From Pseudocercospora fijiensis CIRAD86 (Eukaryota; Ascomycota; Dothideomycetes; Mycosphaerellales; Mycosphaerellaceae), in NCBI RefSeq assembly GCF_000340215.1, contig NW_006921537.1:4047646-4111645 (forward strand): a stretch of DNA of 64,000 nt. Direction: 5' to 3'. Position numbers and translations under genes: made by a program. The notes below the pieces were generated by a model, which worked only from the letters and a program-made list of their open reading frames with translations, was not told the DNA's origin and did not search any database. Below are positions 18,246 to 43,177 of this stretch, piece by piece (positions within the stretch are counted from its first letter, which is position 1; each line of letters opens with the position of its first letter).

Positions 18246-18812
18246 TAGACCCCGTAGTGGTTCGGTTTCCGAACCACCAAACGTATATGGTTTGGTTTCT
18301 TAGCGGCGAACTAGCTCCCTAGTTCCGGTTTGGTTTTTTCGAACTATATAGATTCCTAGTTTAAACTAGAGACTGTATTAGTTTTACTATAAGGACACTC
18401 TTATTCGACTGCCGGCTACGATTGCCGGCTATAATAGTAACTCTGTTACATTTACTACGCTCTTTTGCCGTTGCTAGGGCGTAGTTGCCGTTGCTAGGGC
18501 GTGGTTTTGCTACAAGGACACTCTTATTCGACTGCCGGCTACGATTGCCGGCTATAATAGTTACTAGGTTGTATTTACTACGCTTTATTACCGTTGCTAG
18601 GGCGTGGTTGCCGTTGCTAGGGCGTAGTTGCCGTTGCTAGGGCGTAGTTGCTATTGCCGGGGCGTAGTTGCCGTAGTTACGAAAGCTTACCTATATAACG
18701 TTACGTAGGCGGCAACAATTAGGGCTTCGCGATATTCTTACACTTTCAACTTCTTCCTCTATACCTATACCGATAACAACTACTATACGCTACGCCCCCG
18801 CCCCTTTCCCTT
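18246..18812. repeat. Left subterminal repeats of C1
   Basis: A ~115-bp direct repeat (about 18392 and 18512, starting ACAAGGACACTCTTATTCGA) contains GCCGGCTACGATTGCCGGCT. It is followed by multiple 20-bp units CCGTTGCTAGGGCGTAGTTG (18469-18665). Subterminal repeat clusters are common transposase-binding regions in hAT elements (family knowledge). C2 has one extra 20-bp unit in the first cluster. Confidence 0.8.
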
Positions 18813-19141
18813 ATAATAGTAAGAGAGAAGCGCGCTGCGCGCTAAACAGAAGATAGAACTAAAGACCGCGAGTTTGTTTTGCCTAAGCGTCTAACTAAAA
18901 AGCGCAAGACTAAAGAGGAGTACTCTACGAAGAAGAATTCCGTACGAGACCGCGAGAGAAAGGATAAGATAGATAAGGATAAAAGAGCTAAGGATAAGAG
19001 AAGAAAGGCGCGGAATAAGGCATTCTATCGATAGCTAGCGCCTATAGAAAAAAGTAAAGGTTAGAATAAGAAGACAACCTAAGAGAAGGCTAAGAGGAGG
19101 AAAGAATTGCGGCTAGTTTTCGAGCGTAAAGTTCTAGTAGC

Positions 19142-19248
19142 GTAAGTCAATCTAGCTAGCGGCCGTAGCTAGTAGCTATAGCCGGCAGCCGTAGCCGGCA
19201 GCTATAGCCGGCATATTTTTCTTTAACACGTTAACTAATAGCATTTAG
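19142..19248 (+). other. Intron in C1 ORF1 with GCCGGC repeats
   Basis: 5' site GTAAGT, branch-like TTAACTAATA, 3' site TTTAG. The frame joins as A-P-V-V-A-T. The intron contains three copies of TAGCCGGCA-type repeats (19185-19215). Confidence 0.7.
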
Positions 19249-19729
19249 ACCTGTAGTCGCTACCTCTATCGATACGACCGATAGTAACGGAGATGTTTAG
19301 ATAGCCGAGAACAACAATGCTAGAGTTTAGGATGCCGCGATAGAGCTTAATGCTATAAATAAAGGAACTGAAAAAAGCGAGGAGATACTATACGTCGATC
19401 TAGTAACAGGTGCAGTCTTAGGGCCTAACGCTATAGACGATAAGCGCTAGGAGTAGATCGAGTATAGTCAAAGAGACGAGATACTAGTAAAGGGCTAAGG
19501 CATAAGTCCTATTAATCTAGAAAATCATAGTTAAAGCTACTACGAAAAGCTAGTAAGGATTAGAATCGAGACTAGTCGTCTTTATATCCTCGATATAGAG
19601 TAGAAGTTTCTTTATTAGTATTAGAGCGAAGCCTTTGCGTCTATAAAGGCAAAGTAGCTTACGATTAATGCGATCGGGGCTAGGTATCTAGGGACGGTAG
19701 AAGTGTTACTATAGGAGGAAGGGGTACAG

Positions 19730-19795
19730 GTAATTATTCTATACTCGGCATATATAGCCGGCGTTCGTAGCCGGCAGATACTAATAGTTAAATAG
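19730..19795 (+). other. Intron in C1 ORF1 with GCCGGC repeats
   Basis: 5' site GTAATT, branch-like ATACTAATAG, 3' site AAATAG. The frame continues as phase 0 into AAA GCG TTT CTC. Two TAGCCGGC copies lie inside. Confidence 0.65.
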
Positions 19796-21124
19796 AAAGC
19801 GTTTCTCGAAGGCAGAGTGCTACTACTATATAAAATCTTTACTAAGGCAGAGAGGGCTTATATCCGGAATCTAAGCTACTAGTAGGATAGGTTAGCGTTA
19901 GAATTCTCTAAATCTCTATATAAGCCTCCGAAGGATTACCTATTTTAGCGATACGGCTTTATCTCGACTACTCCGTAGGTACCCGAAGAAGCTCGAGCGC
20001 TCTTTAAGGTCTTTACTAAGAAGCGGAAGGAGTTCGAGGATCAGGATTAGTTAATAGAGCTATTAGTTAGTCTTAGGTTTCGTAGTTAGACTCGGCCTAA
20101 GCATTTGCTTATCGAGTATCTTATACCGAAAGAGGATAGATTGAGACTAAAAACGAGCTTAGATTCGTTAGGTATAGTAGCTCGGTTCCGTTAGTAGGAG
20201 AGAGCCGCCGTATAGAAGGCAAAATTCAGGTAGTTAGGGTAGCTAGGAAAGAAATTCTAGTAGTTAGGCTAGCTAGGGTAGCTAGGAAAAAAAATCTAGT
20301 AGTTGGGTGGCTAGGAAACAAAAAAAAAGGTAGCTAGCTATTTACTACCTAGCTGTTCCTAACGATACGATACTATAAAAGAAAGGGTGTTTCTCTATAG
20401 CTACTAGTACACATCTACTACTCCTAAGTCCTTACCTTACCGTACGAAACCTTAAAACATGCCGACCGACATTGTATATATACTAGGCGCTATACTAGGA
20501 AGGGTAACAACGAGACGATAGTCGAAACAGTCTAGTATATAAGCGAGATTGCGATAACGTCGAGAGGAGGTCGTATACTCACCTTCGAGCCTATCGAGTC
20601 CTAGACGACGATTAGGGCTAGATTTATCCTCTCCGAATCCTAGTAGTAGGAATTTATTATAGGGTACTACTACCTAGTCCTTACCTTTACGGAGTCTAAG
20701 TAGAAGGTTGTTCGGAGATATAAGAACATCGAGTATTAACCCGGAAATCTTCGAAAAGGCTAGCTAGGCGTATCTTTAGAAACCCGAGTATATAGAGCAG
20801 TTCAATTAATAGGTCTATAAGATATAGTTCCCTTTATACTTACGTTCGAAGGAGTGTAAACTCCGGAAGTACTCGATGCGATAGGGGAGTAAGGAGCGAA
20901 CGGACACATTCTAGAAGTTCTTTATAGAGGGGGCATTATACCGTTATACGACTTCTCGACTTAAAGGTTAACTAGTAATTGTCTATAACTTCTACGGTTT
21001 AATCTTAAAATACCCGAAACTAGGGGATAGGAACTTATCGCCTACGAACTATCTCTATTCTAAACGGTGTCGGGAATCTTAAGGAGAGAGGAGAGTTAAT
21101 GTAGATATAGCGTTCTAGAAAGAG

Positions 21125-21203
21125 GTATGTCTTCTAAAATGCCGGCTATAGCTACCGGCTATAGCTGCCGGCTATAGATTCCGGCTACCTAAATCAACCG
21201 TAG
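21125..21203 (+). other. Intron in C1 transposase with GCCGGC repeats
   Basis: 79 nt, GTATGT at 21125, branch-like CTAAATCAAC, 3' CCGTAG. The frame is continuous on both sides (AAA GAG then AGA TCT). The interior is nearly all GCCGGCTATAGCT units (21140-21187). Confidence 0.8.
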
Positions 21204-22158
21204 AGATCTAGCTAATTATTATAGGCTACGCTTAAGGAAGCTCTAGGATTAAAGGCTACCGATTTCTCCCCCGAAGACTTTAAGCAACTAGCAAACGAAA
21301 TGCTAGCTATAAACGGTCTTCCGGAAGACTTCTACGAAAGGGAGTCTATATAGAAGATATACCTATATCTTACAAACTACCCTCCCCTATTTCTCGGCGC
21401 GACAACCTAGCGTGTTATATTCGAAAAGAATAAAGAGGCTGCGTTAGACGACATTCGGGAGATCCTCCGTAATACTCGCCGAGTAGCTATTACTATCGAT
21501 AGCTAGTTAAGCCGGACTATAAGAGCCTCCTTCCTCTCGATTATACTATACTTTATTAATTCGGATTGGAAACTCTAGGAACTTATAATCGGATTCCCTG
21601 AAATTCTAGGTTCCTATACTAGTAAGGATATAGCGAAGCTTGTCTATACGGCAATAGACAGGGTTAGCGTAACAACGAAACTAATCTCGATTACTACGGA
21701 TAACGCTAGTAATAATCGAACATTATATAAGGCGTTGTATATACAATTCACTCGCATATGTCTTTAAAATCACTAATTATATCGATAGGGTCGAGTGCGT
21801 AGAGGAGATTATAAGGTCTACAATCTAGCTTAATCTTCCGAATGTTAAGCTCGCTACGATTCCGGATACGTACGACAATACGTACGATAATAACGATAAA
21901 GAGGAGCCTATTAATAGCCCTAGCCCTATTGAATCGGAGCCGACGTCGTTGCTAGTTATATCCCTATAGAAGTTTCCCTACCTCGCTTATATAGTTTAAA
22001 TCGCGATCCGAGCCCTCTTTAAGACGCTTAAAATTGCACTATTAAACGACGACTAATAGAAGATCCTAGATAAGGATAAAGCAAAGTCGAAAGTCGAGAA
22101 ACTTATTATAGTAATAAGACGGGATAAGGTAGAGAGCCTCGCTCTCGTTTTATATAAG

Positions 22159-22227
22159 GTATAACTTTTGTCCGTAGCCGGTACCTATAGCCGGCAACCT
22201 AGTATAGTTCTAACTCTTTTTCTCTAG
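22159..22227 (+). other. Intron in C1 transposase with GCCGGC repeats
   Basis: 5' GTATAA, branch-like TTCTAAC, polypyrimidine tract and 3' CTAG. It contains GTAGCCGGTACCTATAGCCG. Confidence 0.7.
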
Positions 22228-23575
22228 CTTCGTCGTCTAGTAATATATACGAACTCGAGCTTATAGAGATATAACCGATTCGAGGCTATTTAAAAGAACC
22301 TAATCGAGCGCCCTAAAACCGATACCTAGAATATCGTATAGAATAAGCGATAGCAAAAGCGGCCTCCTTAGCGCCTACTCTGTTTTACTTAAGACGTTAA
22401 GACCCGGTTCGATTCGACTTTCTATATAGTTACGAGGGGATGTACTTTACGTACCGCTCTCGAGATCTATTAGAGTTCCGAGGGTATTAAGTAGCTCGGC
22501 CTTACCGCCGCCGAATAGCGCTAAGTAGAGTATCTCGTCGATATTAGTAAGTATTACGCGAAGGTTACTACTACGATTAGAAGAACCCGAGGACCGACGA
22601 TCTACCTTGTCTTTACGTACTATAACTAGCTCTTTAACGAGCTCGAGGAAACCGTAGCTAAGCTAGCTAAGAAGAGCGTTCCCTAGAAAGTAGCTATAAC
22701 GAAAGCTATAGACACCTCCTATACTAAGTTGCATAAATATTACAGTACTACCTTTAACTCGTTCGGGGATATCTATAGCGTTGCGTGCTTGCTTAACCCG
22801 GTAGAAAAGGATATATACTAGCAAAGGCCGGAATAGAAGGCGGACGAGGTATAGCCGAAGCATTACTAGACTATTCTAGAAAAGATATTCTACGAGCGTC
22901 GGAAAGAAACTAGTCTAAATACAGCTCCTATAAAGAAAAAGAAGGTTTAGAAGGCTCCGATATTATACCTATTTCGTAGGTAGGAAGTAGAGGCAGAAGA
23001 GGAAGCAACTACTAAAGTAAATAAGGAAGAGTTCGATCTCTATCGGCGCGCGAGTAAGTATAAACCCGTAGGCTCGGAAAGAGGGCTAATAATCTCTAGA
23101 TCTTACCGGTCTTCTAAACGAATTCGGAGACGATATTCTCGCTATATAGTAGCGGTTAGAGCCTAAGTTTCTAACGATAGCGTCGGTCGCTCGGGACGTC
23201 CTCGCTATCCCGAGCGTAGGTATAGGCTATAAGAGGTCTTTTAGTATCGCTCGTTACTAGGGCCGCTTTAATCGAATATACTCGCCTACTACCTTCGAAT
23301 CTATTATAGTATTCCGATACTATCTCCTCTACTAGAATCGCTAAGGTAGGTTACTAAAGATTATACTAAAGGAGTTAATCGAGGAATTAGAAAACCTTAA
23401 GATCGAAGAAACCTAGGAGCGCGAAGAGAATGCGAAATTTAGTCTAAGCGAAACCCTAATTAGCGATAACGAAGAGGAGGAGGGCGGAGGTAGAAGGCGA
23501 TACCGGGTCGAGAAGCGGAAACGTATATAGGCTTAGAGCAGCTTTAAGGAGACGAAGCGTTTACGTATAAGGTAA

Positions 23576-23904
23576 TATAGCCGGCGTATATAGCCGGTAT
23601 ATGTCCGAAATGTATTTCGAATTCCTAGGACCTAAACAGACTAGTTGCTATAGCAACCGACCCCGCTTACCTACGGACTATTTCTAATTCTCTATTCGCT
23701 CTTCCTCTCCTTCTTCCCTTTCCCTATATTCTTAAAGACAAACATACCTTAAGGATTCGGCTCTTCGGGCCTTCCTAAGCCGGCTGCCTCCCCTTCCTTA
23801 AGCTACTATCCTTTATTCGAATCTAACGATAACCTAATAAGGCGGTTTAATAGAAGACTATTTGTTCTAGAAGGTAAGAAGCATTAATATCTCCCTACGA
23901 TTAT
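23576..23904. promoter_or_regulatory. Presumed promoter region of the CenH3-like gene in C1
   Basis: It starts with two TAGCCGG repeats (23577-23600) just after the transposase stop, then a pyrimidine-rich tract (CTCTTCCTCTCCTTCTTCCC, 23699-23718) typical of fungal promoters. No ORF. The promoter role is inferred from position. Confidence 0.35.
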
Positions 23905-24528
23905 ATGCTTATTAATTTTCTAGGTCCTACCGATATACCCTCGTCGCCTAAACGCGTAGATAAATATCTTTAGAGGCTAAAGGGCAAGGGTAAAGCAAGC
24001 TAAGTATAGGGAGACCGTAGCGAGAACGAGATATCGGAAGAGCAAGGCTCTCCGTAGTATATACGAAGGAAGGGGGTTCCTCGGAAAACAGTACCGAAAA
24101 ACAAGAAGGCTATAGGTAGACAGGAGAAGGCTAAAAAGAGTAGGCGGACGAAGACTATCGCGAAGAAAAGTTATCTTTCTATTAAAAGAAAGGGAACAAG
24201 GCAGGACTCGACGACAAAGAAGCGGCGCTTTAAACTAGGTACTATTGCCCTTCGCTAGATCCGGCTTTTCTAAAACAAAAGAGGGACCGAGCTTTTAATC
24301 CCTAAGACTCCCTTCTAGCGACTCGTCCGAGAAATTACATTAGATTTTCGGTCTAGTATACGATTTACGGCTAAGGCGATTAGTGCTCTTTAGGAAGCTA
24401 CGGAGGCATTTCTCGTAACCGAGCTTAAGCTTTTAAACCTCCTTACTATCTATACGAAGCGGGTTACTCTTTAAAATAAAGATATACAGCTTCTAGCTAA
24501 AATTCGGCGTCGGTTTATAGCGGATTAG
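23905..24528 (+). pseudogene. Centromeric-type histone H3-like gene (CenH3-like) of C1, RIP-damaged
   Basis: A frame of 208 codons runs from ATG 23905 to TAG 24526; internal stops are only at expected Q codons. About the first 110 residues are a basic, disordered tail (KKAIGRQEKAKKSRRTKT). Then comes a histone H3 fold: GTIALR (stop) IRLF (stop) N (the aN helix), TELLIPKTPF (stop) RLVREI, DFRSSIRF, AISAL (stop) EATEAFLV, IYTKRVT and KDIQLLAKIRRRFI. These match the H3 blocks IRRYQK, LPFQRLVREI, ALQEA.EAYLV, HAKRVT and KDIQLARRI. A long tail, EATEAFLV and an ending like RRxRxFI recall CENP-A/Cse4 (inference). Histone H3 family is clear; CenH3 subtype is not. The same frame stays coherent for about 190 codons past the TAG. 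Confidence 0.82.
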
Positions 24529-25833
24529 TTGGAAATTGTATTTAGTCGTTAGATTAACCTAGGAGGAGGCCTATTTTCGCATCCTTTTGCCGGCTATAGG
24601 TGCCGGCTACATTTCTAATTTTATCTCCGCGCCGTCCCTAAATCTAAGGTACGAAGTAGAAACCTAGCGCTCTATATTTACCCGGCTCTTATAGAGACGA
24701 GCTACATTCAGATTAGTTTCTTCGTATATCGCGACCTAGCGGGTAGTAAGCGAAAGGGCGATAGAACGTTTATAATACGTCTCTATTTAGACCTAAAATA
24801 CAAAGGTCCTAAGGAGCCCTAGTATCCTAACTATAAGGAGATTCTTTAGTATTAGCACTTTAATCCTCTATACTACGAGGTAGATAGCAAGCCTACGAGA
24901 GAGAAACTTTAACGAGAAATTCTCTATAATGCGTAGCGCTATTGTATAGCTATAGATGCGTACTAAGTCCGGCAACTCGAAGAAGAATTAAGACAGCGTA
25001 TTAGCGACCGAGGAGGAGATCGATAGTATACTAGTAGAGTCGAGGTCTTATAAGCGAAGTATAAGATAATATAGGCTCTTAGTCGTATAGAGTAACGTAC
25101 TATATAAATAACTAGGCGTGCTACTCTTATTTACTTACGACCTATATCCTAGGATACTCTTCTTATACTTTTTATACTCTTTTCTAATACCTTACCTGTA
25201 AGCGCTCCGCGACAACCGAGTGAATATAAGCTATAGGGTTTCCGCTCGGTACCTCAGCCTCCGAGATAGGGCGGAGTTGAATTTAGAGCGATAGCCGGCA
25301 CTCGTAGCCGGCACTCGTAGCCGGCATATAGAGACGGTAGTAGGCCTTTTCCTGCTAAATGACTAGCTTGTTTAGTATAGCCTACCTGATATTTCTTATA
25401 TTTACTAGCAATAGGCCTAGGTTACTTATAAGATTACTATAGCTAGTAAAGGCACTACTAAAGAATATCTATACTATAGTAGGATACTATTATTACGCCG
25501 GCTATTTATTAAAAGGAGGCTTTCGCCTATTACTATACCGGCTATATATACCGGCTATATTTCAAAGTCTGCCGTACCTGCCTTTTTTAGCCGTACCTGC
25601 CTTTTTTAGCCGTGCCTGCCTTCTTTCCTTGCTCTAACGTTACTATAATATAGGCTTGCGCGAAGCTTACTCTATTGCCTAGCGACACCGCGACACTACC
25701 GCTATATTTAACCTTCGCATCGATACCTATACCTCTACGCTCTATATCTACTACCTCCGCAATACCCTCGCTCCGCGCGCGCCTTCGTATACCTTCGTAA
25801 CGCACTTTTTTCCTCAATTCGACGACTTTTACA
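24529..25833 (+). other. C1 stretch after the CenH3-like gene: coherent frame then repeat DNA
   Basis: To about 25100 the CenH3 frame continues with only Q-type TAG/TAA stops and unrecognised sequence (for example YIQISFFVYRDLAGSKRKGD, VRQLEEELRQRI). It could be a carboxyl extension if TAG 24526 was once CAG. A GCCGGC repeat pair at 24589-24612 may mark another intron. From 25285 on, TAGCCGGCACTCG units (25288-25330), GCCGGCTAT units (25540-25560) and CCTGCCTTTTTTAGCCGTAC units (25575-25625) occupy the DNA upstream of the next gene. The minus frame at 25587-25817 is likely a shadow. Confidence 0.45.
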
Positions 25834-26125
25834 ATAGCGAGTCTACTTAACTAAGTTACGACGCCTCGTAAGAAGGGACCTACTACTTCTACGGGTCGTA
25901 ATAAGATCGGAAATAGTAGAACGAGCATAGTATATCAACGTAAGATAGCTGCTACTACTACCGCTAGCTCCGGTGCTAGAAAGGGCGTCGCGAGTAAGGC
26001 TCCGCGTAAGACAACGGCGGGCAAGGCTCCGCGTAAGACAACGGCGGGCAAGGCTCTACGTAAGACGACAACTAGCGCTTCTGCTACTAGTAGCAATCGT
26101 GCGAAGCGTCGATAGCGCCTAGGAA

Positions 26126-26216
26126 GTAAGTCCTATTTATAGCCGGTAGCGTAGCCGGTAGCGTAGCCGGTAGCGTAGCCGGCATTCTTACTGTCTTTTT
26201 ACTAATCCTTCTTTAG
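26126..26216 (+). other. Intron 1 of the H3-like gene in C1
   Basis: 91 nt, GTAAGT start, branch-like TTTTACTAATCC, 3' CTTTAG. It contains four AGCCGGTAGCGT units. Splicing restores the H3 sequence LGTVALYEIR, strong support for the boundaries. Confidence 0.85.
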
Positions 26217-26399
26217 CCGTAGCCCTCTATGAGATTCGGTAGTATTAGAAGAGTTCTTAGCTCCTAATCCGCAAAACTCCTTTCTAACGACTTATTCGCG
26301 AAATTACCTAGGATTATAGAACGGACCTTCGCTTCTAAGCCTCCGCGATAGGCGCCCTTTAAGAGGCTATAGAAGCCTACCTAGTTCGTATCTTCGAAT

Positions 26400-26447
26400 A
26401 TATATTTCTCTTCTACCTCTTTTCGGACTATACTAATACTATTTTAG
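26400..26447 (+). other. Intron 2 of the H3-like gene in C1, donor destroyed
   Basis: 48 nt. The 3' end TACTAATACTATTTTAG is clear. The donor reads ATATAT where GTATAT is expected, a TG to TA change. Frame on both sides fits the H3 fold (RIFE then VNLIAI). Confidence 0.65.
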
Positions 26448-26879
26448 CGGTCAACCTTATAGCTATCTACGCGAAGCGTATAACGATTATAGACAAGGAT
26501 TTCAAAGTACTCGATCAGATTCTAAAAGGCTAGAATATCTACATTCGAGACGGTGCTAGGTAGGATAGATATTCTAGTAGAAAGGATGTTCGTAGTGTTA
26601 TCTACAAGCTTTTCTATATACGAAATGAGCCGCTGTTATACGGCGCTATATACCGCGCTCTAAATACTCTCTAAGTATATATATATAGTATAGTATGCTT
26701 TATTGGCCGTACGGAATAGAAGTCTCCTAAAATCCCGTTAGTACTAAGGAGTAAAAAGGCCGGCTACGCTGCCGGCTACGCTGCCGGCTACGCTACTAGC
26801 TACGCTACTAGGTTTTTTAAAGAACTAAAAGAAGATAGACATTCCGGTTGATTTGTATTAGTTTAGATTTTTATAAAAA

Positions 26880-26948
26880 GAAAACAGGGAAAAATAAGGA
26901 AGGTTGAAGAGCCTAATAGTTATAGTTATAGGCACTATCCCTGTTTTC
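26880..26948. repeat. Inverted repeat GAAAACAGGGA...TCCCTGTTTTC
   Basis: Perfect 11-bp arms with a 47-bp spacer, conserved in C2 (about 42219-42288). The arms kept their CpA/TpG in both copies. It lies between the H3-like gene and the minus-strand ORF and could be a transcript-end hairpin or a binding site. Confidence 0.7.
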
Positions 26949-27019
26949 TAGAGCATATTATATACCTGCCTTCGCAACTCTACCTAATACTCCCTCTAAA
27001 TATCCTTATACTCTACCTA

Positions 27020-27480
27020 CTAAAAATTCAACTAGGTACCTAGACCTGTAGCTGCCTCTATATCTTTTACTATCTTCTATAGGTTGAAGGCCTCTTCTAT
27101 AGCAGCCTCTACCTCCTTATATAATACGAAGTCACTACCTACCCTACCCTTTATATCTCCTAAATAACTAAGAGTTCTAAGGAACGAACTAGCATTCGGC
27201 CTTAGTATAGCGAGTGACTAGTAGAACGTTCTACAGAGCTGCCTTATAGCTCTTTTATATACTATACCGATACCGAGGGAGGAGCTATCCTAGTACTTAA
27301 TATTGTCGAATAGTTCGGTAGGAAAGTGTATAAACTTCTTAAGGAGGAGGACTTCTAAGGAAATCGATAAGTTCTGCCTAGATCTAGATAAAGATATTCT
27401 GCTAAGCAGTTAGGGAATTGAACTGTAAACGAAAGGATAAAATTTATACCTAAGGAGTATAGTTTCCGAACTGAACTATA
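27020..27480 (-). pseudogene. Small unknown ORF at the right end of C1 (decayed)
   Basis: A coherent minus-strand frame ends at 27020. It contains SISLEVLLLKKFIHFPTELF, then KRAIRQLCRTFY, RPNASSFLRTLSYLGDIKG and EVEAAIEEAFNL, with stops only at Q/W-type codons. It is predicted helical and about 120-150 residues long. Not recognised. The start is uncertain. It faces the H3-like gene convergently and is present in C2. Confidence 0.4.
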
Positions 27481-27837
27481 ATGCCTTATATATATATATA
27501 TATGCTTTTAATTGGTTAGTGCCCTTAGCTGATTGTCTATAGATTTAAGGTTATATAAGTACCTTTATACAACTACGTAGCCTAAGTAGGATTCGAAAAT
27601 TCTATAAGTACTAAGGACTAAAAATGCCGGCTACGCTGCCGGCTACACTGCTAAGTCTTACAAAGGGCTTGCTTGAAGCTACGTATACATTCGTACACTT
27701 CTTAAAAACCGATAAATTATATGGTTCGAACTAGCTACTTATATAGTTGCTTAGCAAACCAACCCAAACCAAACTAGAGTTTCGGCTTAGTAAACCAAAC
27801 CAAACCAACCCGAACCACTGCGGGGTCTATAGTAATC

Positions 27838-33627: not shown

Positions 33628-34214
33628 TAGACCCCGTAGTGGTTCGGTTTCCGAACTACTAAACGTATATAGTTTAGTTTCTTAGCGGCGAACTAGCTCC
33701 CTAGTTCCGGTTTAGTTTTTTCGAACTATATAGATTCCTAGTTTGAACTAGAGACTGTATTAGTTTTACTATAAGGACACTCTTATTCGACTGCCGGCTA
33801 CGATTGCCGGCTATAATAGTAACTCTGTTACATTTACTACGCTCTTTTGCCGTTGCTAGGGCGTAGTTGCCGTTACTAGGGCGTAGTTGCCGTTGCTAGG
33901 GCGTAGTTTTGCTATAAGGATACTCTTATTCGACTACCGGCTACGATTGCCGGCTATAATAGTTACTAGGTTGTATTTACTACGCTTTATTACCGTTGCT
34001 AGGGCGTAGTTACCGTTGCTAGGGCGTAGTTGCCGTTGCTAGGGCGTAGTTGCTATTACCGGGGCGTAGTTGCCGTAGTTGCGAAAGCTTACCTATATAA
34101 CGTTACGTAGGCGGCAATAATTAGGGCTTCGCGATATTCTTATACTTTCAACTTCTTCCTCTATACCTATACCGACAATAACTACTATACGCTGCGCCCC
34201 CGCCCCTTTCCCTT

Positions 34215-35748
34215 ATAATAGCAAGAGAGAAGCGCGCCGCGCGCTAAATAGAAGATAGAACTAAAGACCGCGAGTTTGTTTTATCTAAGCGTCTAACTAA
34301 AAAGCGTAAGACTAAAGAGGAGTACTCTACGAAGAAGAATTCCGTACGAGACCGCGAGAGAAAGGACAAGATAGATAAGGATAAAAGAGCTAAGGATAAA
34401 AGAAGAAAGGCGCGGAATAAGGCATTCTATTAATAGCTAGCGCCTATAGAAAAAAGTAAAGGTTAGAATAAGAAGACAACCTAAGAGAAGGCTAAGAGGA
34501 GGAAAGAATTACGGCTAGTTTTCGAGCGTAAAGTTCTAGTAGCGTAAGTCAATCTAGCTAGCGGCCGTAGCTAGTAGCTATAGCCGGCAGCCGTAGCCGG
34601 TAGCTGTAGCCGGCATATTTTTCTTTAATACGTTAACTAATAGTATTCAGACCTATAGCCGCTACCTCTATCGATACGACCAATAGTAACGGAGATGTTC
34701 AAATAGCCGAGAACAACAATACTAGAGTTTAGAATGCCGCGACAGAGCTTAATGCTACGAATAAAGGAACTAAAAAAAGCGAGAAGATACTATACGTCGA
34801 TCTAGTAACAGGTACAGTCTTAGGGCCTAACGCTATAGACGATAAGCGCTAGGAGTGGATCGAGTATAGTTAAAGAGACGAGATACTAGTAAAGGGCTAA
34901 GGTATAAGTCCTATTAATCTAGAAAATTATAGTTAAAGCTGCTGCGAAAAGCTAGTAAGGATTAGAATCGAGACTAGTCGTCTTTATATCCTCGATATAG
35001 AGTAGAAGTTTCTTTATTAGTATTAGAGCGAAGCCTTTACGTCTATAAAGGCAAAGTGGCTTACGATTAATGCGATCGGGGCTAGGTATCTAGGGACAGC
35101 AGAAGTATTACTATAGGAGGAAGGGGTATAGGTAATTATTCTGTACTCGGTATATATAGCCGGCGTTCGTAGCCGGCAGATACTAACAGTTAAATAGAAA
35201 GCGTTTCTCGAAGGCAGAGTGCTACTGCTATATAAAATCTTTACTAAGGCAGAGAGGGCTTATATCCGGAATCTAAGCTACTAGTAGGATAGGTTAACGT
35301 TAGAATTCTCTAAATCTCTATATAAGCCTCCGAAGGATTACCTATTTTAGCGATACGGCTTTATCTCGACTACTCCGTAGGTACCTAAAGAAGCTTAAGC
35401 GCTCTTTAAGGTCTTTACTAAGAAGCGGAAGGAGTTCGAGGATTAGGATTAGTTAATAGAGCTATTAGTTAGTCTTAGGTTTCGTAGTTAGACTCGGCCT
35501 AAGCATTTGCTTATCGAGTGTCTTATACCGAAAGAGGATAGATTGAGACTAAAAACGAGCTTAGATTCGTTAGGTATAGTAGCTCGGTTCCGTTAGTAGG
35601 AGAGAGCCGCCGTATAGAAGGCAAAATTCAGGTAGTTAGGGTAGCTAGGAAAGAAATTCTAGTAGTTAGGCTAGCTAGGGTAGCTAGGAAAAAAAATCTA
35701 GTAGTTAGGTAGCTAGGAAACAAAAAAAAAAGGTAGCTAGCTATTTAC
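34215..35748 (+). pseudogene. hAT family C ORF1 in C2, unknown basic protein
   Basis: The counterpart of 18813-20345 in C1, with both GCCGGC-repeat introns at the same places and the same lysine-rich amino part. It has more stops than C1. Not recognised. Confidence 0.5.
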
Positions 35749-35861
35749 TGCCTAGCTGTTCCTAACGATACGATACTATAAAAGAAAGGGTGTTTCTCTA
35801 TAGCTACTAGTATATATCTACTACTCTTAAGTCCTTACCTTACCGTACGAAACCTTAAAAC

Positions 35862-38800
35862 ATACCGACCGATATTATATATATACTAGGCGCTACACTA
35901 GGAAGGGTAACAACGAGACGATAGTCGAAACAGTCTAGTATACGAGTAAGATTGCGATAATGTCGAGAGGAGGTCGTATACTTACCTTCGAGCCTATCGA
36001 GTCCTAGACTACGATTAGGGCTAGATTTATCCTCTCCGAATCCTAGTAGTAGGAATTCATTATAGGGTACTACTACCTAGTCCTTACCTTTACGGAGTCT
36101 AAGCAGAAGGTTGTTCGGAGATATAAGAATATCGAGTATTAATCCGGAAATCTTCGAAAAGGCTAGCTAGGCGTATCTTTAGAAACCCGAGTATATAGAG
36201 CAGTTCAATTAATAGGTCTATAAGATATAGTTCCCTTTATACTTACGTTCGAAGGAGTATAAACTCCGGAAGTACTCGATGCGATAGGGGAGTCAGGAGC
36301 GAACGGACATATTCTAGAAGTTCTTTATAGAGGGGGCATTACACCGTTATACGACTTCTCGACTTAAAGGTTAACTAGTAATTGTTTGCAACTTCTACGG
36401 TTTAATCTTAAAATACCCGAAACTAGGGGATAGGAACTTATCGCCTACGAACTATCTCTATTCTAAACGGTATCGGGAATCTTAAGGAGAGAGGAGAGTT
36501 AATATAGATATAGCGTTCTAGAAAGAGGTATATCTTCTAAAATGCCGGCTATAGCTACCGGCTATAGCTACCGGCTATAGATTCCGGCTACTTAAATCAA
36601 CCGTAGAGATCTAGCTAATTATTATAGGCTGCGCTTAAGGAAGCTCTAGGATTAAAGGCTACCGATTTCTCCCCCGAAGACTTTAAGCAACTAGCAAACG
36701 AAATGCTAGCTATAAACGGTCTTCCGGAAGACTTCTACGAAAGGGAGTCTATATAGAAGACATACCTATATCTTATAAACTACCCTCCCCTATTTCTCGG
36801 CGCGATAACCTAGCGTATTATATTCGAAAAGAACAAAGAGGCTACGTTAGACGATATTCGGGAGATCCTCCGTAATACTCGCCGAGTAGCTATTACTATC
36901 GATAGCTAGTTAAGCCGGACTATAAGAGCCTCCTTCCTCTCGATTATACTATACTTTATTAATTCGGATTAGAAACTCTAGGAACTTATAATCGGATTCT
37001 CTAAAATTCTAGGTTCCTATACTAGTAAGGATATAGCGAAGCTTATCTATACGGCAATAGATAGGGTTAGCGTAATAACGAAACTAATCTCGATTACTGC
37101 GGACAACGCTAGTAATAATCGAACATTGTATAAGGCGTTGTATATACAATTCACTCGTATATGTCTTTAAAATCACTAATTATATCGATAGGGTCGAGTG
37201 CGTAGAGGAGATTATAAGGTCTATAATCTAGCTTAATCTTCCGAATATTAAGCTCGCTACGATTCCGGATACGTACGACAATACGTACGATAATAACGAT
37301 AAAGAGGAGCCTATTAATAGCCCTAGCCCTATTAAATCGGAGCCGACGTCGTTACTAGTTATATCCCTATAGAAGTTTCCCTACCTCGCTTATATAGTTT
37401 AAATCGCGATCCGAGCCCTCTTTAAGATGCTTAAAATTGCACTATTAAACGACGACTAATAGAAGATCCTAAATAAGGATAAAGCAAAGTCGAAAGTCGA
37501 GAAACTTATTATAGCAATAAGACGGGATAAGGTAGAGAGCCTCGCTCTCGTTTTATATAAGGTATAACTTTTGTCCGTAGCCGGTACCTATAGCCGGCAA
37601 CCTAGTATAGTTCTAACTCTTTTTCTCTAGCTTCGTCGTCTAGCAATATATACGAACTCGAGCTTATAGAGATATAAACGATTCGAGGCTATTTAAAAGA
37701 ACCTAATCGAGCGCCCTAAAACCGATACCTAGAATATCGTATAGAATAAGCGATAGTAAAAGCGGCCTCCTTAGCGCCTACTCCGTTTTACCTAAGACGT
37801 TAAAACTCGGTTCGATTCGACTTTCTATATAGTTACGAGGGGATATACTTTACGTACCGCTCTCGAGATCTATTAGAGTTCCGAGGGTATTAAGTAGCTC
37901 GGCCTTACCGCCGCCGAATAGCGCTAAGTAGAGTATCTCGTCGATATTAGTAAGTATTACGCGAAGGTTACTACTACGATTAGAAGAACCCGAGGACCGA
38001 CGATCTACCTTGTCTTTACGTACTATAACTAGCTCTTTAACGAGCTCGAGGAAACCGTAGCTAAGCTAGCTAAGAAGAGCGTTCCCTAGAAAGTAGCTAT
38101 AACGAAAGCTATAGACACCTCCTATACTAAGTTGCATAAATATTATAGTACTACCTTTAACTCGTTCGGAGATATCTATAGCGTTACGTACTTACTCAAC
38201 CCGGTAGAAAAGGATATATACTAGTAGAGGCCGGAATAGAAGGCGGACGAGGTATAGCCGAAGCATTACTAGACTATTCTAGAAAAGATGTTCTACGAGC
38301 GTCGGAAAGAAACTAGTCTAAATACAGCTCCTATAAAGAAAAAGAAGGTTTAGAAGGCTCCGATATTATACCTGTTTCGTAGGTAGGAAGTAGAGGCAGA
38401 AGAGGAAGTAACTACTAAAGTAAATAAAGAAGAGTTCGATCTCTATCGGCGCGCGAGTAAGTATAAACCCGTAGGCTCGGAAAGAGGGCTAATAATCTCT
38501 AGATCTTACCGGTCTTCTAGACGAATTCGGAGACGATATTCTCGCTATATAGTAGCGGTTAGAGCCTAAGTTTCTAACGATAGCGTCGGTCGCTCGGGAC
38601 GTCCTCGCTATCCCGAGCGTAGGTATAGGCTATAAGAGGTCTTTTAGTATCGCTCGTTACTAGGGCCGCTTTAATCGAATATACTCGCCTACTACCTTCG
38701 AATCTATTATAGTATTCCGATACTATCTCCTCTACTAGAATCGCTAAGGCAGGTTACTAAAGATTATACTAAAGGAGTTAATCGAGGAATTAGAAAACCT

Positions 38801-38978
38801 TAAGATCGAAGAAACCTAGGAGCGCGAAGAGAATACGAAATTTAGTCTAAGCGAAACCCTAATTAGCGATAACGAAGAGGAGGAGGGTAGAGGTAGAAGG
38901 CGATACCGGGTCGAGAAGCGGAAACGTATATAGGCTTAGAGTAGCTTTAAGGAGACGAAGCGTTTACGTATAAGGTAA
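35862..38978 (+). pseudogene. hAT transposase of C2
   Basis: Colinear with C1 20459-23575 at a constant offset of 15,403. The start codon is ATA here against ATG in C1, a direct RIP hit. The ITTDNASNN-type region (C2 reads ITADNASNN, about 37090-37120) and the ARDVLAIPSVGIG dimerisation block (about 38590-38635) are readable. The introns carry the same GCCGGC repeats. Dead. Confidence 0.85.
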
Positions 38979-39307
38979 TATAGCCGGTATATATAGCCGG
39001 TATATGTCCGAAATGTGTTTCGAATTCCTAGGACCTAAATAGACTAGTTGCTATAGCAACCGACCCCGCTTACCTACGGACTATTTCTAATTCTCTATTC
39101 GCTCTTCCTCTCCTTCTTCCCTTTCCCTATATTCTTAAAGACAAATATACCTTAAGGATTCGGCTCTTCGGGCCTTCCTAAGCCGGCTGCCTCCCCTTCC
39201 TTAAGCTACTATCCTTTATTCGAATCTAACGATAACCTAATAAGGCGGTTTAATAGAAGACTATTTGTTCTAGAAGGCAAGAAGTATTAATGTCTCCTTA
39301 CGATTAT

Positions 39308-39931
39308 ATGCTTATTAATTTTCTAGGTCCTACCGATATACCCTCGTCGCCTAAACGCGTAGATAAATATCTTTAGAGGCTAAAAGGTAAGGGTAAAGCA
39401 AGCTAAGTATAGGGAGACCGTAGCGAGAACGAGATATCGGAAGAGTAAGGCTCTCCGTAGTATATACGAAGGAAGAGGGTTCCTCGGAAAACAGTACCGA
39501 AAAACAAGAAGGCTATAGGTAGATAGGAGAAGGCTAAAAAGAGTAGGCGGACGAAGACTATCGCGAAGAAAAGTTATCTTTCTATTAAAAGAAAGGGAAT
39601 AAGGTAGGACTCGACGACAAAGAAGCGGCGCTTTAAACTAGGTACTATTGCCCTTCGCTAGATCCGGCTTTTCTAAAATAAAAGAGGGACCGAGCTTTTA
39701 ATCCCTAAGACTCCCTTCTAGCGACTCGTCCGAGAAATTATATTAGATTTTCGGTCTAGTATACGATTTACGGCTAAGGCGATTAGTGCTCTTTAGGAAG
39801 CTACGGAGGCATTTCTCGTAACCGAGCTTAAGCTTTTAAACCTCCTTGCTATCTATACGAAGCGGGTTACTCTTTAAAATAAAGATATATAGCTTCTAGC
39901 TAAAATTCGGCGTCGGTTTATAGCGGATTAG
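39308..39931 (+). pseudogene. CenH3-like histone gene in C2
   Basis: Same length and frame as C1 23905-24528 (offset 15,403), with ATG kept at 39308. The H3-fold motifs TELLIPKTPF, RLVREI, AISAL and IYTKRVT are readable, with a few extra RIP stops. Being in both copies shows the gene is part of the element and not a chance capture by one copy. Confidence 0.82.
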
Positions 39932-41223
39932 TTGGAAATTGTATTTAGTCGTTAGATTAACCTAGGAGGAGGCCTATTTTCGCATCCTTTTGCCGGCTAT
40001 AGGTGCCGGCTACATTTCTAATTTTATCTCCGCGCCGTCCCTAAATCTAAGGTACGAAGTAGAAACCTAGCGCTCTATATTTACCCGGCTATTATAGAGA
40101 CGAGCTATATTTAGATTAGTTTCTTCGTATATCGCGACCTAGCGGGTAGTAAGCGAAAGGGCGATAGAACGTTTATAATACGTCTCTATTTAGACCTAAA
40201 ACACAAAGGTCCTAAGGAGCCCTAGCATCCTAACTATAAGGAGATTCTTTAGTATTAGCACTTTAATCCTCTATACTACGAGGTAGATAGCAAGCCTACG
40301 AAAGAGAAACTTTAACGAGAAATTCTCTATAATGCGTAGCGCTATTATATAGCTATAGATACGCACTAAGTCCGGCAACTCGAAGAAGAATTAAGATAGC
40401 GTATTAGCGACCGAGGAAGAGATCGATAGTATACTAGTAGAGTCGAGGTCTTATAAGCGAAGCATAAGATAATATAGGCTCTTAGTCGTATAGAGTAACG
40501 TACTATATAAATAACTAGGCGTACTACTCTTATTTACTTACGACCTATATCCTAGGATACTCTTCTCGTACTTTTTATACTCTTTTCTAATATCTTACCT
40601 ATAAGCGCTCCGCGACAACCGAGTAAATATAAGCTATAGGGTTTCCGCTCGGTACCTTAGCCTCCGAGATAGGGCGGAGTTGAATTTAGAGCGATAGCCG
40701 GCACTCGTAGCCGGCATATAGAGACGGTAGTAGGCCTTTTCCTGCTAAATAACTAGCTTGTTTAGTATAGCCTACCTAATATTTCTTATATTTACTAGCA
40801 ATAGGCCTAGGTTACTTATAAGATTACTATAGCTAGTAAAGGCATTACTAAAGAATATCTATACTATAGTAAGATACTATTATTACGCCGGCTATTTATT
40901 AAAAGGAGGCTTTCGCCTATTACTATACCGGCTATATATGCCGGCTATATTTCAAAGTCTCCCGTACCTGCCTTTTTTAGCCGTACCTACCTTTTTTAGC
41001 CGTACCTACCTTCTTTTCTTGCTCTAACGTTACTATAATATAGGCTTACGCGAAGCTTACTCTATTACCTAGCGATACCGCGATATTACCGCTATATTTA
41101 ACCTTCGTATCGATACCTATACCTCTACGCTCTATATCTACTACCTCCGTAATACCCTCGCTCCGCGCGCGTCTTCGTACACCTTCGTAACGCACTTTTT
41201 TCCTTAATTCGACGACTTTTATA

Positions 41224-42014
41224 ATAGCGAGTCTACTTAACTAAGTTACGACGCCTCGTAAGAAGGGACCTAGTACTTCTACGGGTCGTAACAAGACCGG
41301 AAATAGTAGAACGAGCATAGTATATCAACGTAAGAGGGCTGCTACTACTGCCGCTAGCTCCGGTGCTAGAAAGGGCGTCGCGAGTAAGGCTCCGCGTAAG
41401 ACAACGCCGGGGTAGGCTCTACGCAAGACGACAACTAGCGCTTCTACTACTAGTAGCAATCGTACGAAGCGTCGATAGCGCTTAGNNNNNNNNNNNNNNN
41501 NNNNNNNNNNNNNNNNNNNNNNNNNNNNNNNNNNNNNNNNNNNNNNNNNNNNNNNNNNNNNNNNNNNNNNNNNNNNNNNNNNNNNAGAAGAGTTCTAAGC
41601 TCCTAATCCGCAAAACACCTCTCTAACGACTTGTTCGCGAAATTGCCTAGGATTATAGAACGGACCTTCGCTTCTAAGCCTCCGCGATAGGCGCCCTTTA
41701 AGAGGCTATAGAAGCCTACCTAGTTCGTATCTTCGAATACAATATTTCTCTTCTACCTCTTTTCGGACTATACTAATACTATTTTAGCGGTCAACCTTAT
41801 AGCTATCTACGCGAAGCGTATAACGATTATAGACAAGGATTTCAAAGCACTCGATTAGATTCTAAAAGGCTGGAATGTCTATATTCGAGACGGTACTAGA
41901 TAGGATAGATGTTCTAGTAGAAAGGATGTTCGTAGTATTATCTACAAGCTTTTCTATATACGAAATAAGCCGCTATTATACGGCGCTGTATACCGCGCTC
42001 TAAATACTCTCTAA
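41224..42014 (+). pseudogene. Histone H3-like gene in C2, interrupted by assembly gap
   Basis: The counterpart of C1 25834-26674. The tail has only two GKAPRKTT-type units against three in C1, with the region between damaged. The 100-N gap removes the end of exon 1, intron 1 and the start of exon 2. Exons 2 and 3 resume at 41586 with LLIRKTP (stop-rich), the EAIEAYLV region and YAKRITI, ending at TAA 42012. Start ATA as in C1. Confidence 0.8.
41486..41585. other. Assembly gap, 100 N
   Basis: A run of exactly 100 N, the usual size for a gap of unknown length. The matching stretch in C1 is about 26126-26240 and includes the AGCCGGTAGCGT tandem units, which may explain the assembly failure. Confidence 0.99.
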
Positions 42015-42359
42015 GCATATATATATAGTATAGTATACTTTATTAGCCGTACGGAATAGAAGTCTCCCAAAATCCCGTTAGTACTAAGGAGTAAAAAGGC
42101 CGGCTACGCTACCGGCTACGCTGCCGGCTACGCTACTAGCTACGCTGCTAGGTTTTTTAAAGAACTAAAAGAAGATAGACATTCCGGTTGATTTGTATTA
42201 GTTTAGATTTTTATAAAAAGAAAACAGGGAAAAATAAGGAAGGTTGAAGAGCCTAATAGTTATAGTTATAGGCACTATCCCTGTTTTCTAGAGTATATTA
42301 TACACCTGCCTTCGCAACTCTACCTAATACTCCCTCTAAATATCCTTATACTCTACCTA

Positions 42360-42820
42360 CTAAAAATTCAACTAGGTACCTAGACCTATAGCTGCCTCTA
42401 TATCTTTTACTATCTTCTATAGGTTAAAGGCCTCTTCTATAGTAGCCTCTACCTCCTTATATAATACGAAGTTACTACCTGCCCTACCCTTTATATCTCC
42501 TAAATAACTAAGAGTTCTAAGGAACGAACTAGCATTCGGCCTTAGTATAGCGAGTAACTAGTAGAACGTTCTATAGAGCTGCCTTATAGCTCTTTTATAT
42601 ACTATACCGATACCGAGGGAGGAGCTATCCTAGTACTTAATATTGTCGAATAGTTCGGTAGGAAAGTATATAAACTTCTTAAGGAGGAGGACTTTTAGGG
42701 AAATCGATAAGTTCTACCTAGATCTAGATAAAGACATTCTACTAAGCAGTTAGGGAATTGAACCGTAAACGAAAGGATGAAATTCATACCTAAGGAGTAC
42801 AGTTTCCGAACTGAACTATA
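42360..42820 (-). pseudogene. Small unknown ORF at right end of C2
   Basis: The counterpart of the minus-strand frame at 27020-27480 in C1, with a few extra stops. Stop codon at 42360-42362. Not recognised. Confidence 0.4.
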
Positions 42821-43177
42821 ATGCCTTATATATATGTATGTATACTTTTAATTGGTTAGTGCCCTTAGCTAATTGTCTATAGATTTGAGGTTATATAAGT
42901 ACCTTTATACAACTACGTAGCCTAAGTAGGATTCGAAAATTCTATAAGTACTAAGGACTAAAAATACCGGCTACGCTGCCGGCTACACTACTAAGTCTTA
43001 TAAAGGGCTTGCTTGAAGCTACGTATACATTCGTACACTTCTTAAAAACCGATAAATTATATAGTTCGAACTAGCTACTTATATAGTTGCTTAGCAAACT
43101 AACCCAAACCAAACTAGAGTTTCGGCTTAGTAAACTAAACCAAACCAACCCAAACTACTGCGGGGTCTAGTTGCTTA

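What the first reader, a model, noticed from the sequence alone, without database searches (positions are those of the whole stretch)
23905..24528. A hAT transposon that carries a centromeric-type histone H3-like gene
Seen: in both C1 and C2, at the same place, a frame with a long basic tail and an H3 fold (TELLIPKTPF, RLVREI, EATEAFLV, IYTKRVT, KDIQLLAKI). Known: H3 and CENP-A are core nucleosome proteins, and I recall no DNA transposon family that carries them. Inference: the element could mark its own chromatin, target centromeric or silent chromatin, or escape silencing.
Basis: partly seen in the sequence, partly recalled or inferred. Interest (0 to 1): 0.93.

Follow-up and report, generated by a model that had tools for sequence, protein, structure and literature searches.

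The report
hAT transposon carrying histone H3 genes
A fungal jumping gene carries two altered copies of the DNA-packaging protein histone H3; this was already published, but the pattern of change suggests the copies were working genes rather than accidental passengers before the genome's defences destroyed them.

Summary
Both window elements (18246-27829, 33628-43169) are hAT-type transposons with matching terminal repeats and 8-bp target duplications, and each encodes a histone H3 fold at the stated place (PF00125, E 1.6e-22 and 2.3e-21). It is not new: Dhillon et al. 2019 described this family in Pseudocercospora fijiensis (784 H3-like copies), and Manning et al. 2013 a similar case in Pyrenophora tritici-repentis. 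"Centromeric-type" is not supported: host H3 outscores host CENP-A in 42 of 42 comparisons, and the tree agrees.

What I add: the two H3-like genes per element are different paralogs. The second, about 2 kb downstream, has an H3-like tail and two introns; the published "16-amino-acid insertion" is most simply a 48-nt intron. That argues against capture of a transcript for this gene. Both differ from host H3 far less in protein than neutral drift predicts (H3A 54% versus about 30% identity), so they diverged as coding genes. Constraint inside the element is shown for the transposase, only suggestive for the H3 genes. All 149 non-host rows scored carry stops. A chromatin role, such as resisting silencing, is inference.

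The parts
18246..27829 (+). Element C1: complete hAT-type transposon, 9584 bp
   Evidence: Terminal inverted repeat beginning TAGACCCCG at both ends and TSD TAGTAATC on both sides
33628..43169 (+). Element C2: second complete copy, 9542 bp, about 96% identical to C1
   Evidence: BLAST self-comparison; TSD GTTGCTTA on both sides
20402..23560 (+). Transposase reading frames in several exons, RIP-broken; hAT dimerisation-like motif about 23120-23330. Limits approximate
   Evidence: Frames; a 35-residue piece matches Dimer_Tnp_hAT at E 0.0049, 17.1 bits, below the 21.4 cut-off; purifying pattern between subfamilies A and D, P 1.1e-4
23905..24228 (+). H3A N-terminal part, basic tail
   Evidence: Translation; open pieces; no Pfam match for the 66-residue piece
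24229..24528 (+). H3A histone-fold core (the finding)
   Evidence: PF00125 at 24133-24507, E 1.6e-22; no indels in 21 copies
39539..39910 (+). H3A core in element C2
   Evidence: PF00125, E 2.3e-21
25855..26125 (+). H3B tail exon (start uncertain) with repeated H3-tail-like motif (RKTTAGKAPRKTTAGKA, like host RKSTGGKAPRK)
   Evidence: tblastn of host H3, E 4.7e-4; 27-bp tandem repeat 25996-26066; no Pfam match
26126..26216 (+). H3B intron 1, 91 nt in C1
   Evidence: GTAAGT donor and TAG acceptor in 20 of 20 readable copies (the other reads N); 69-116 nt in those 20; its removal puts tail and core of C1 in one frame
26217..26399 (+). H3B core exon 2
   Evidence: tblastn of host H3; aligns without gaps
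26400..26447 (+). H3B intron 2, 48 nt (most likely what the published account reads as a 16-aa insertion)
   Evidence: Donor sites +1 and +5 vary only between G (7) and A (14), TAG acceptor in 21 of 21, 48 nt in 20 of 21 and 49 nt in C2
26448..26530 (+). H3B core exon 3 (end uncertain)
   Evidence: tblastn; resumes alignment with H3 without a gap, by eye
41588..41737 (+). H3B core exon 2 (part) in element C2
   Evidence: tblastn, 68% identity over 50 residues to host H3

Best explanation
A high-copy hAT transposon family that carries two H3-type histone genes, H3A and H3B, now dead in this genome: every non-host copy scored has stops, most simply from RIP. A single H3-type ancestor, probably a genomic H3 gene with an intron, entered the element, duplicated before the present subfamilies split, and both genes were carried on as coding genes. 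While alive, the element would have made two H3 variants. I found no H4 in it, so these would have paired with host H4 and entered host nucleosomes. My most likely reading is that they changed chromatin in the element's favour, for example by weakening silencing. Shown: the element, the two paralogs, their H3-not-CENP-A affinity, intron 1 of H3B (intron 2 likely), and divergence from H3 under coding constraint. Inferred: single origin, selection inside the element, expression, nucleosome entry, effect on silencing.
For: Histone HMM. Both genes in 21 of 21 copies examined, 19 of them chosen for having H3A. Genome-wide word counts at up to one mismatch: 349 H3A, 330 transposase, 349 H3B, with backward-read controls 0, 0 and 1; 90 of 100 transposase words paired with H3A. 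Tree: H3A 100/99 and H3B 80/83, sisters at 95/82, beside host H3. Introns. Neutral simulations with the same numbers of transversions and transitions give 30% mean and 43.5% maximum amino-acid identity in 20,000 runs against 54% observed for H3A of C1, and 41% mean, 58% maximum against 67% for H3B exon 2 of C1. H3B core, subfamily A versus D: nonsynonymous/synonymous transversion ratio 0.40, P 0.03. No H4 match better than E 0.045 in the 21 copies. Expression precedent: ESTs of the P. tritici-repentis hAT H3L gene (PMC3538342, passages read).
Against: Purifying selection on the H3 genes between subfamilies is weak: H3A core ratio 0.64 (P 0.37) A-D, 0.41 (P 0.29) A-B, and 7 nonsynonymous to 0 synonymous B-D; H3B core 0.93 (P 0.54) B-D and 0.64 (P 0.32) A-B; H3B tail 1.93, 1.23 and 0.91. 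No correction for many tests was made. Constraint seen against host H3 could have acted in a host paralog before capture. RIP-type changes shared by H3A and H3B may inflate their sister grouping, which rests on 64 columns. A C-terminal H3A piece matches yeast Cse4 best. All 149 non-host rows are broken, so nothing shows activity today. Tail pieces of both genes match no Pfam family, and the H3B tail found no relative at E 0.001.
Confidence: 0.6

Rival explanations
1. Passive transduplication (published view): a hAT picked up a host H3 transcript by chance, amplified it as cargo, and RIP destroyed it; it never had a function for the element.
For: PMC6710886: all extra copies RIP-inactivated, no intron found in near-full-length copies. 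H3A lacks an intron at the host intron-2 site in the 21 copies. No significant constraint on the H3A core between subfamilies.
Against: H3B has a GTAAGT...TAG intron kept in 20 of 20 readable copies, by eye 3 nt from the host intron-2 position and in the same phase, plus a likely second intron. About 46% nucleotide difference from host H3 in C1 H3A, with much less protein loss than chance. Two H3 paralogs kept in three subfamilies.
Confidence: 0.3
2. Centromeric-type histone: the element carries a CENP-A-like gene that targets or marks centromeric chromatin.
For: A 44-residue C-terminal H3A piece matches yeast Cse4 at E 6.4e-8 versus H3 at 3.9e-6.
Against: Host H3 core outscores host CENP-A core in 42 of 42 comparisons; loop 1 has H3 length and F, not the CENP-A insertion and W; CENP-A forms its own group at 100/98 without H3A or H3B. 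The host CENP-A is a separate intact gene (L028; 76-84% identical to named relatives in Septoria, Sphaerulina, Cercospora and Lecanosticta).
Confidence: 0.04
3. A divergent host H3 paralog was captured late; the constraint seen reflects its earlier life in the host, and the element only carried it.
For: Constraint is clear against host H3 but weak between subfamilies.
Against: Among the 150 rows scored of 772 candidates, only host H3 and host CENP-A are stop-free, so no donor paralog was seen here. The H3A/H3B split predates the subfamilies.
Confidence: 0.2

Closest known systems
hAT family with histone H3-like sequences of Pseudocercospora fijiensis (Dhillon et al. 2019, PMC6710886)
   Same: Very probably the same family and species: about 9.5 kb, 20-bp TIR, 8-bp TSD, one or two H3-like copies per element, RIP in all, original H3 on scaffold 6 (here on contig C6).
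   Different: I read the second copy as a distinct paralog with two introns, its '16-aa insertion' as an intron, and both genes as formerly coding rather than a dead retrocopy. They could not identify the dimerisation domain; here one piece of it scores E 0.0049, below the cut-off.
hAT element with H3L gene of Pyrenophora tritici-repentis (Manning et al. 2013, PMC3538342)
   Different: 5.6 kb, one H3L, mostly intact and with ESTs; the 2019 paper found no similarity between the hAT elements and treats the captures as independent. I did not have its sequence.
Fungal CENP-A (Cse4)
   Same: H3-type fold; some C-terminal similarity.
   Different: Has a loop-1 insertion and tryptophan that H3A and H3B lack; separate group in the tree.

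Membership tests
hAT superfamily DNA transposon | 8-bp target-site duplication | tested here: met
   Identical 8-bp TSD in both window copies; in the other 19 copies the test did not find both ends
hAT superfamily DNA transposon | Short terminal inverted repeats | tested here: met
   Both ends of C1 and C2
hAT superfamily DNA transposon | hAT transposase with dimerisation domain | tested here: inconclusive
   A 35-residue piece matches Dimer_Tnp_hAT at E 0.0049, below the curated cut-off; none of the 47 genome rows of that model lies in the window; DUF659 reported by PMC6710886
Histone H3 | Histone fold above the curated Pfam cut-off | tested here: met
   85.7 and 81.9 bits versus 26.4 for H3A, read through stops by the tool
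Histone H3 | Closer to H3 than to CENP-A | tested here: met
   42 of 42 comparisons; tree; one piece disagrees
Histone H3 | Assembly into nucleosomes | not testable with these tools
   Needs an intact protein
CENP-A / CenH3 | Longer loop 1 and tryptophan in the RWQS motif | tested here: not met
   In C1, H3A DFRSSIRF and H3B DYRTDLRF have H3 length and F
CENP-A / CenH3 | Groups with CENP-A in a tree | tested here: not met
   CENP-A group at 100/98 excludes them; 64 columns only
CENP-A / CenH3 | Centromere localisation | not testable with these tools
   No experiment
Transduplicated H3 retrocopy (2019 model) | Absence of introns | tested here: not met
   H3B has intron 1 and most likely intron 2; H3A has none at the host intron-2 site

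The most novel reading that the evidence does not exclude
The two H3 genes are resident, selected parts of a hAT lineage: transposon-encoded H3 variants, made without H4, that alter host nucleosomes to protect or spread the element, an anti-silencing strategy built on histones, arisen at least twice in hAT elements of Dothideomycetes.
Probability: 0.3. Interest if true: 0.85.

Novelty: already known. Interest (0 to 1): 0.4.

Why it matters
The existence of H3-carrying hAT elements is published. If the genes were kept by selection, transposons would join viruses as makers of their own histones, and the repeated uptake of H3 by fungal hATs would become a testable case of a transposon manipulating chromatin. 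The intron evidence also questions the published capture-of-a-transcript model for the second gene.

Tried and rejected
H113 to Y, seen in both genes, was considered as a functional change and rejected: CAC to TAC is the change RIP makes. A protein-database search with the open H3B tail piece found nothing at E 0.001 among 114 candidates. Pfam on open pieces was weak: histone E 0.017, 0.077 and 0.024, all below the cut-off; the SelB, DUF4212 and TNP-like hits are also below their cut-offs and were not used; 4 of 10 pieces had no match. Selection on the H3A core between subfamilies, with 21 and then 29 copies, was not significant. Transversions between H3A of C1 and host H3 by codon position (20/15/23) were not decisive alone. 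One search used a wrong frame for H3B exon 3 and forced an alignment of 24640-25120, which is not homologous between subfamilies; its figures for those are superseded or dropped. Pieces of host H4 gave nothing better than E 0.045. Five paper searches were made; besides the two papers named I saw no other report of a transposon carrying H3 in the listings, and one search listed none. Of PMC9145170 on viral histones I saw two passages. Rows dropped: in the tree 3 of 11 H3A copies and 1 of 8 H3B copies asked for did not fit the extraction pattern, 1 of 6 and 2 of 6. In the intron-1 lengths C2 is left out because it reads N there. Copy L010 has a 391-nt insertion in the stretch from intron 2 to exon 3.

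Full report
Observation. The stated span holds the stated motifs in one frame with stops. The Pfam histone model reaches E 1.6e-22 at 24133-24507 and E 2.3e-21 at 39539-39910 (150 rows scored of 772 candidates). The two window elements are 96.4% identical over their two main aligned stretches, begin and end with the same inverted repeat, and are flanked by identical 8-bp duplications. The window shows strong CpA loss and TpA gain (0.34 and 1.7 of expected), the mark of RIP. In the 150 rows only host H3 is free of stops; in the 150 rows only host H3 and a piece of host CENP-A are.

Prior art. A paper search found Dhillon et al. 2019, PMC6710886; I read the abstract and parts 1-5 of 7 of the text. 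It describes this family in P. fijiensis: 784 H3-like sequences in 471 hAT elements, full length 9.5-9.9 kb, 20-bp TIR, 8-bp TSD, intact H3 on scaffold 6, the same event in five other species, and an earlier one in P. tritici-repentis. Of Manning et al. 2013, PMC3538342, I read passages: a 5.6-kb hAT with transposase, a central ORF and H3L, with ESTs. The present assembly (73.9 Mb, 30 contigs, intact H3 on C6, 772 and 780 first-look candidates) fits P. fijiensis; that identification is inference.

Two different H3 genes. tblastn of host H3 finds both genes in C1, C2 and 19 of 19 further copies (those 19 were chosen by their H3A hit). H3A of C1 is 46% identical to host H3 over residues 6-132 and 54% in the core, with a 2-residue insertion before helix 1. 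H3B exon 2 of C1 is 67% identical, aligns without gaps, and follows a tail exon in which an H3-tail motif is repeated. In C1 the two are 61% identical in the aligned part. In a tree of 34 rows and 64 columns (5 H3, 14 CENP-A, 8 H3A, 7 H3B) H3A and H3B each form one group across subfamilies A, B and D (100/99 and 80/83), are sisters (95/82), and lie beside host H3. Parallel RIP changes may help that grouping. By eye, L65 to A or T, which RIP does not make, is in all 15 element rows; S86 to A is in all 8 H3A rows but only 4 of 7 H3B rows.

Not CENP-A. Host H3 core beats host CENP-A core in bit score for both genes in all 21 copies, 42 of 42. Loop 1 is of H3 length and the tryptophan is missing. 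Against this, a C-terminal 44-residue piece of H3A scores best with yeast Cse4 among solved structures, while the preceding 24-residue piece matches H3.

Introns. Intron 1 of H3B (26126-26216) keeps GTAAGT and TAG in 20 of 20 readable copies; C2 reads N there. Its length in those 20 is 69-116 nt. In C1 it is 91 nt, so tail and core are in different frames unless it is removed (25855 and 26219 differ by 364; 364 less 91 is 273). By eye it lies 3 nt from the position of the host's second H3 intron, in the same phase. The second, 48 nt in 20 of 21 copies and 49 in C2, has G or A at donor positions +1 and +5 (7 G and 14 A at each, as RIP of GTATGT would give), TACTAAT as a possible branch site, and TAG at the end in 21 of 21. 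Because 48 is a multiple of three, an in-frame insertion, as published, is not strictly excluded; the splice signals favour an intron. By eye its sequence differs little between subfamilies, which I cannot explain. Intron 1 alone argues that H3B was not captured as a finished transcript, unless introns were gained later.

Constraint. With the same numbers of transversions, and of transitions at C or G sites, laid at random on host H3 (20,000 runs each), amino-acid identity would be 30% (maximum 43.5%) against 54% for H3A of C1; 32% (max 46%) against 55% for L009; 41% (max 58%) against 67% for H3B exon 2 of C1; and 39% (max 55%) against 55% for L009, P 5e-5. So the genes diverged as protein-coding genes. 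Whether they did so inside the element is less clear. Between subfamilies A and D, fixed transversions in the transposase avoid amino-acid changes (69 nonsynonymous, 34 synonymous, ratio 0.43, P 1.1e-4; shifted-frame control 1.10); B-D gives 0.53 (P 0.004) and A-B 0.29 (P 8e-4). H3B core gives 0.40 (P 0.03) A-D but 0.93 B-D and 0.64 A-B. H3A core gives 0.64 A-D, 0.41 A-B, and 7 to 0 B-D, none significant, with few changes at all. With eight more copies the H3A-core transversion columns by codon position are 5/1/6. These comparisons share copies and were not corrected for multiple testing.

Residence in the family. At up to one mismatch an 18-base H3A word occurs 349 times, a 22-base transposase word 330 times and a 21-base H3B word 349 times, with backward-read controls of 0, 0 and 1. 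Of the first 100 listed transposase words, 86 have the exact H3A word downstream, 81 of these at 1078-1083 bp; 3 more have a hit and 1 a hit; 10 are unresolved, and 4 of those have the H3B word 2.9-3.7 kb downstream by eye. H3 is thus a standing part of this family. Pieces of host H4 found nothing better than E 0.045 in the 21 copies.

Mechanism. Best-supported reading: the element once made two H3 variants that had to use host H4. What they did is inference; altering chromatin to resist silencing is my preferred idea, since I see little else a DNA transposon gains from H3, and by the published account hAT lineages took up H3 in two orders of fungi. The published passive-passenger model remains a serious rival, and nothing here tests expression or nucleosome entry.

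Noticed in passing
18246-27829 and 33628-43169: GCCGG is 3.5 per kb in C1 and 2.7 in C2 but 0.8 in the rest of the window; by eye many lie in putative introns and spacers, including H3B intron 1 at 26136-26183.
   Followed up: partly
24640-25120: A reading frame between H3A and H3B in subfamily A; most of it has no match in the B and D copies examined.
   Followed up: partly
contigs C11, C12, C13, C17, C20, C23 of the assembly: Among the 40 rows, the 11 most similar to the D query (84-100%) lie only on C11, C12, C17, C20 and C23 (5 on C23), and 5 of 6 B-type rows on C13: subfamilies look clustered by chromosome.
   Followed up: no
26700-27830: Subfamilies A and B are nearly identical at the 3' end (1 fixed transversion in 1127 sites) though partly unalignable in the middle, so the elements look mosaic.
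   Followed up: no
26930-27450, minus strand: A further broken reading frame of unknown kind on the reverse strand.
   Followed up: no
L028:2798-3320: The host's intact CENP-A gene, with one intron; named relatives in Septoria, Sphaerulina, Cercospora and Lecanosticta are 76-84% identical.
   Followed up: yes
18379-18629 and 33761-34051: Tandem repeats of 123 and 143 bp near the 5' end of each element.
   Followed up: no
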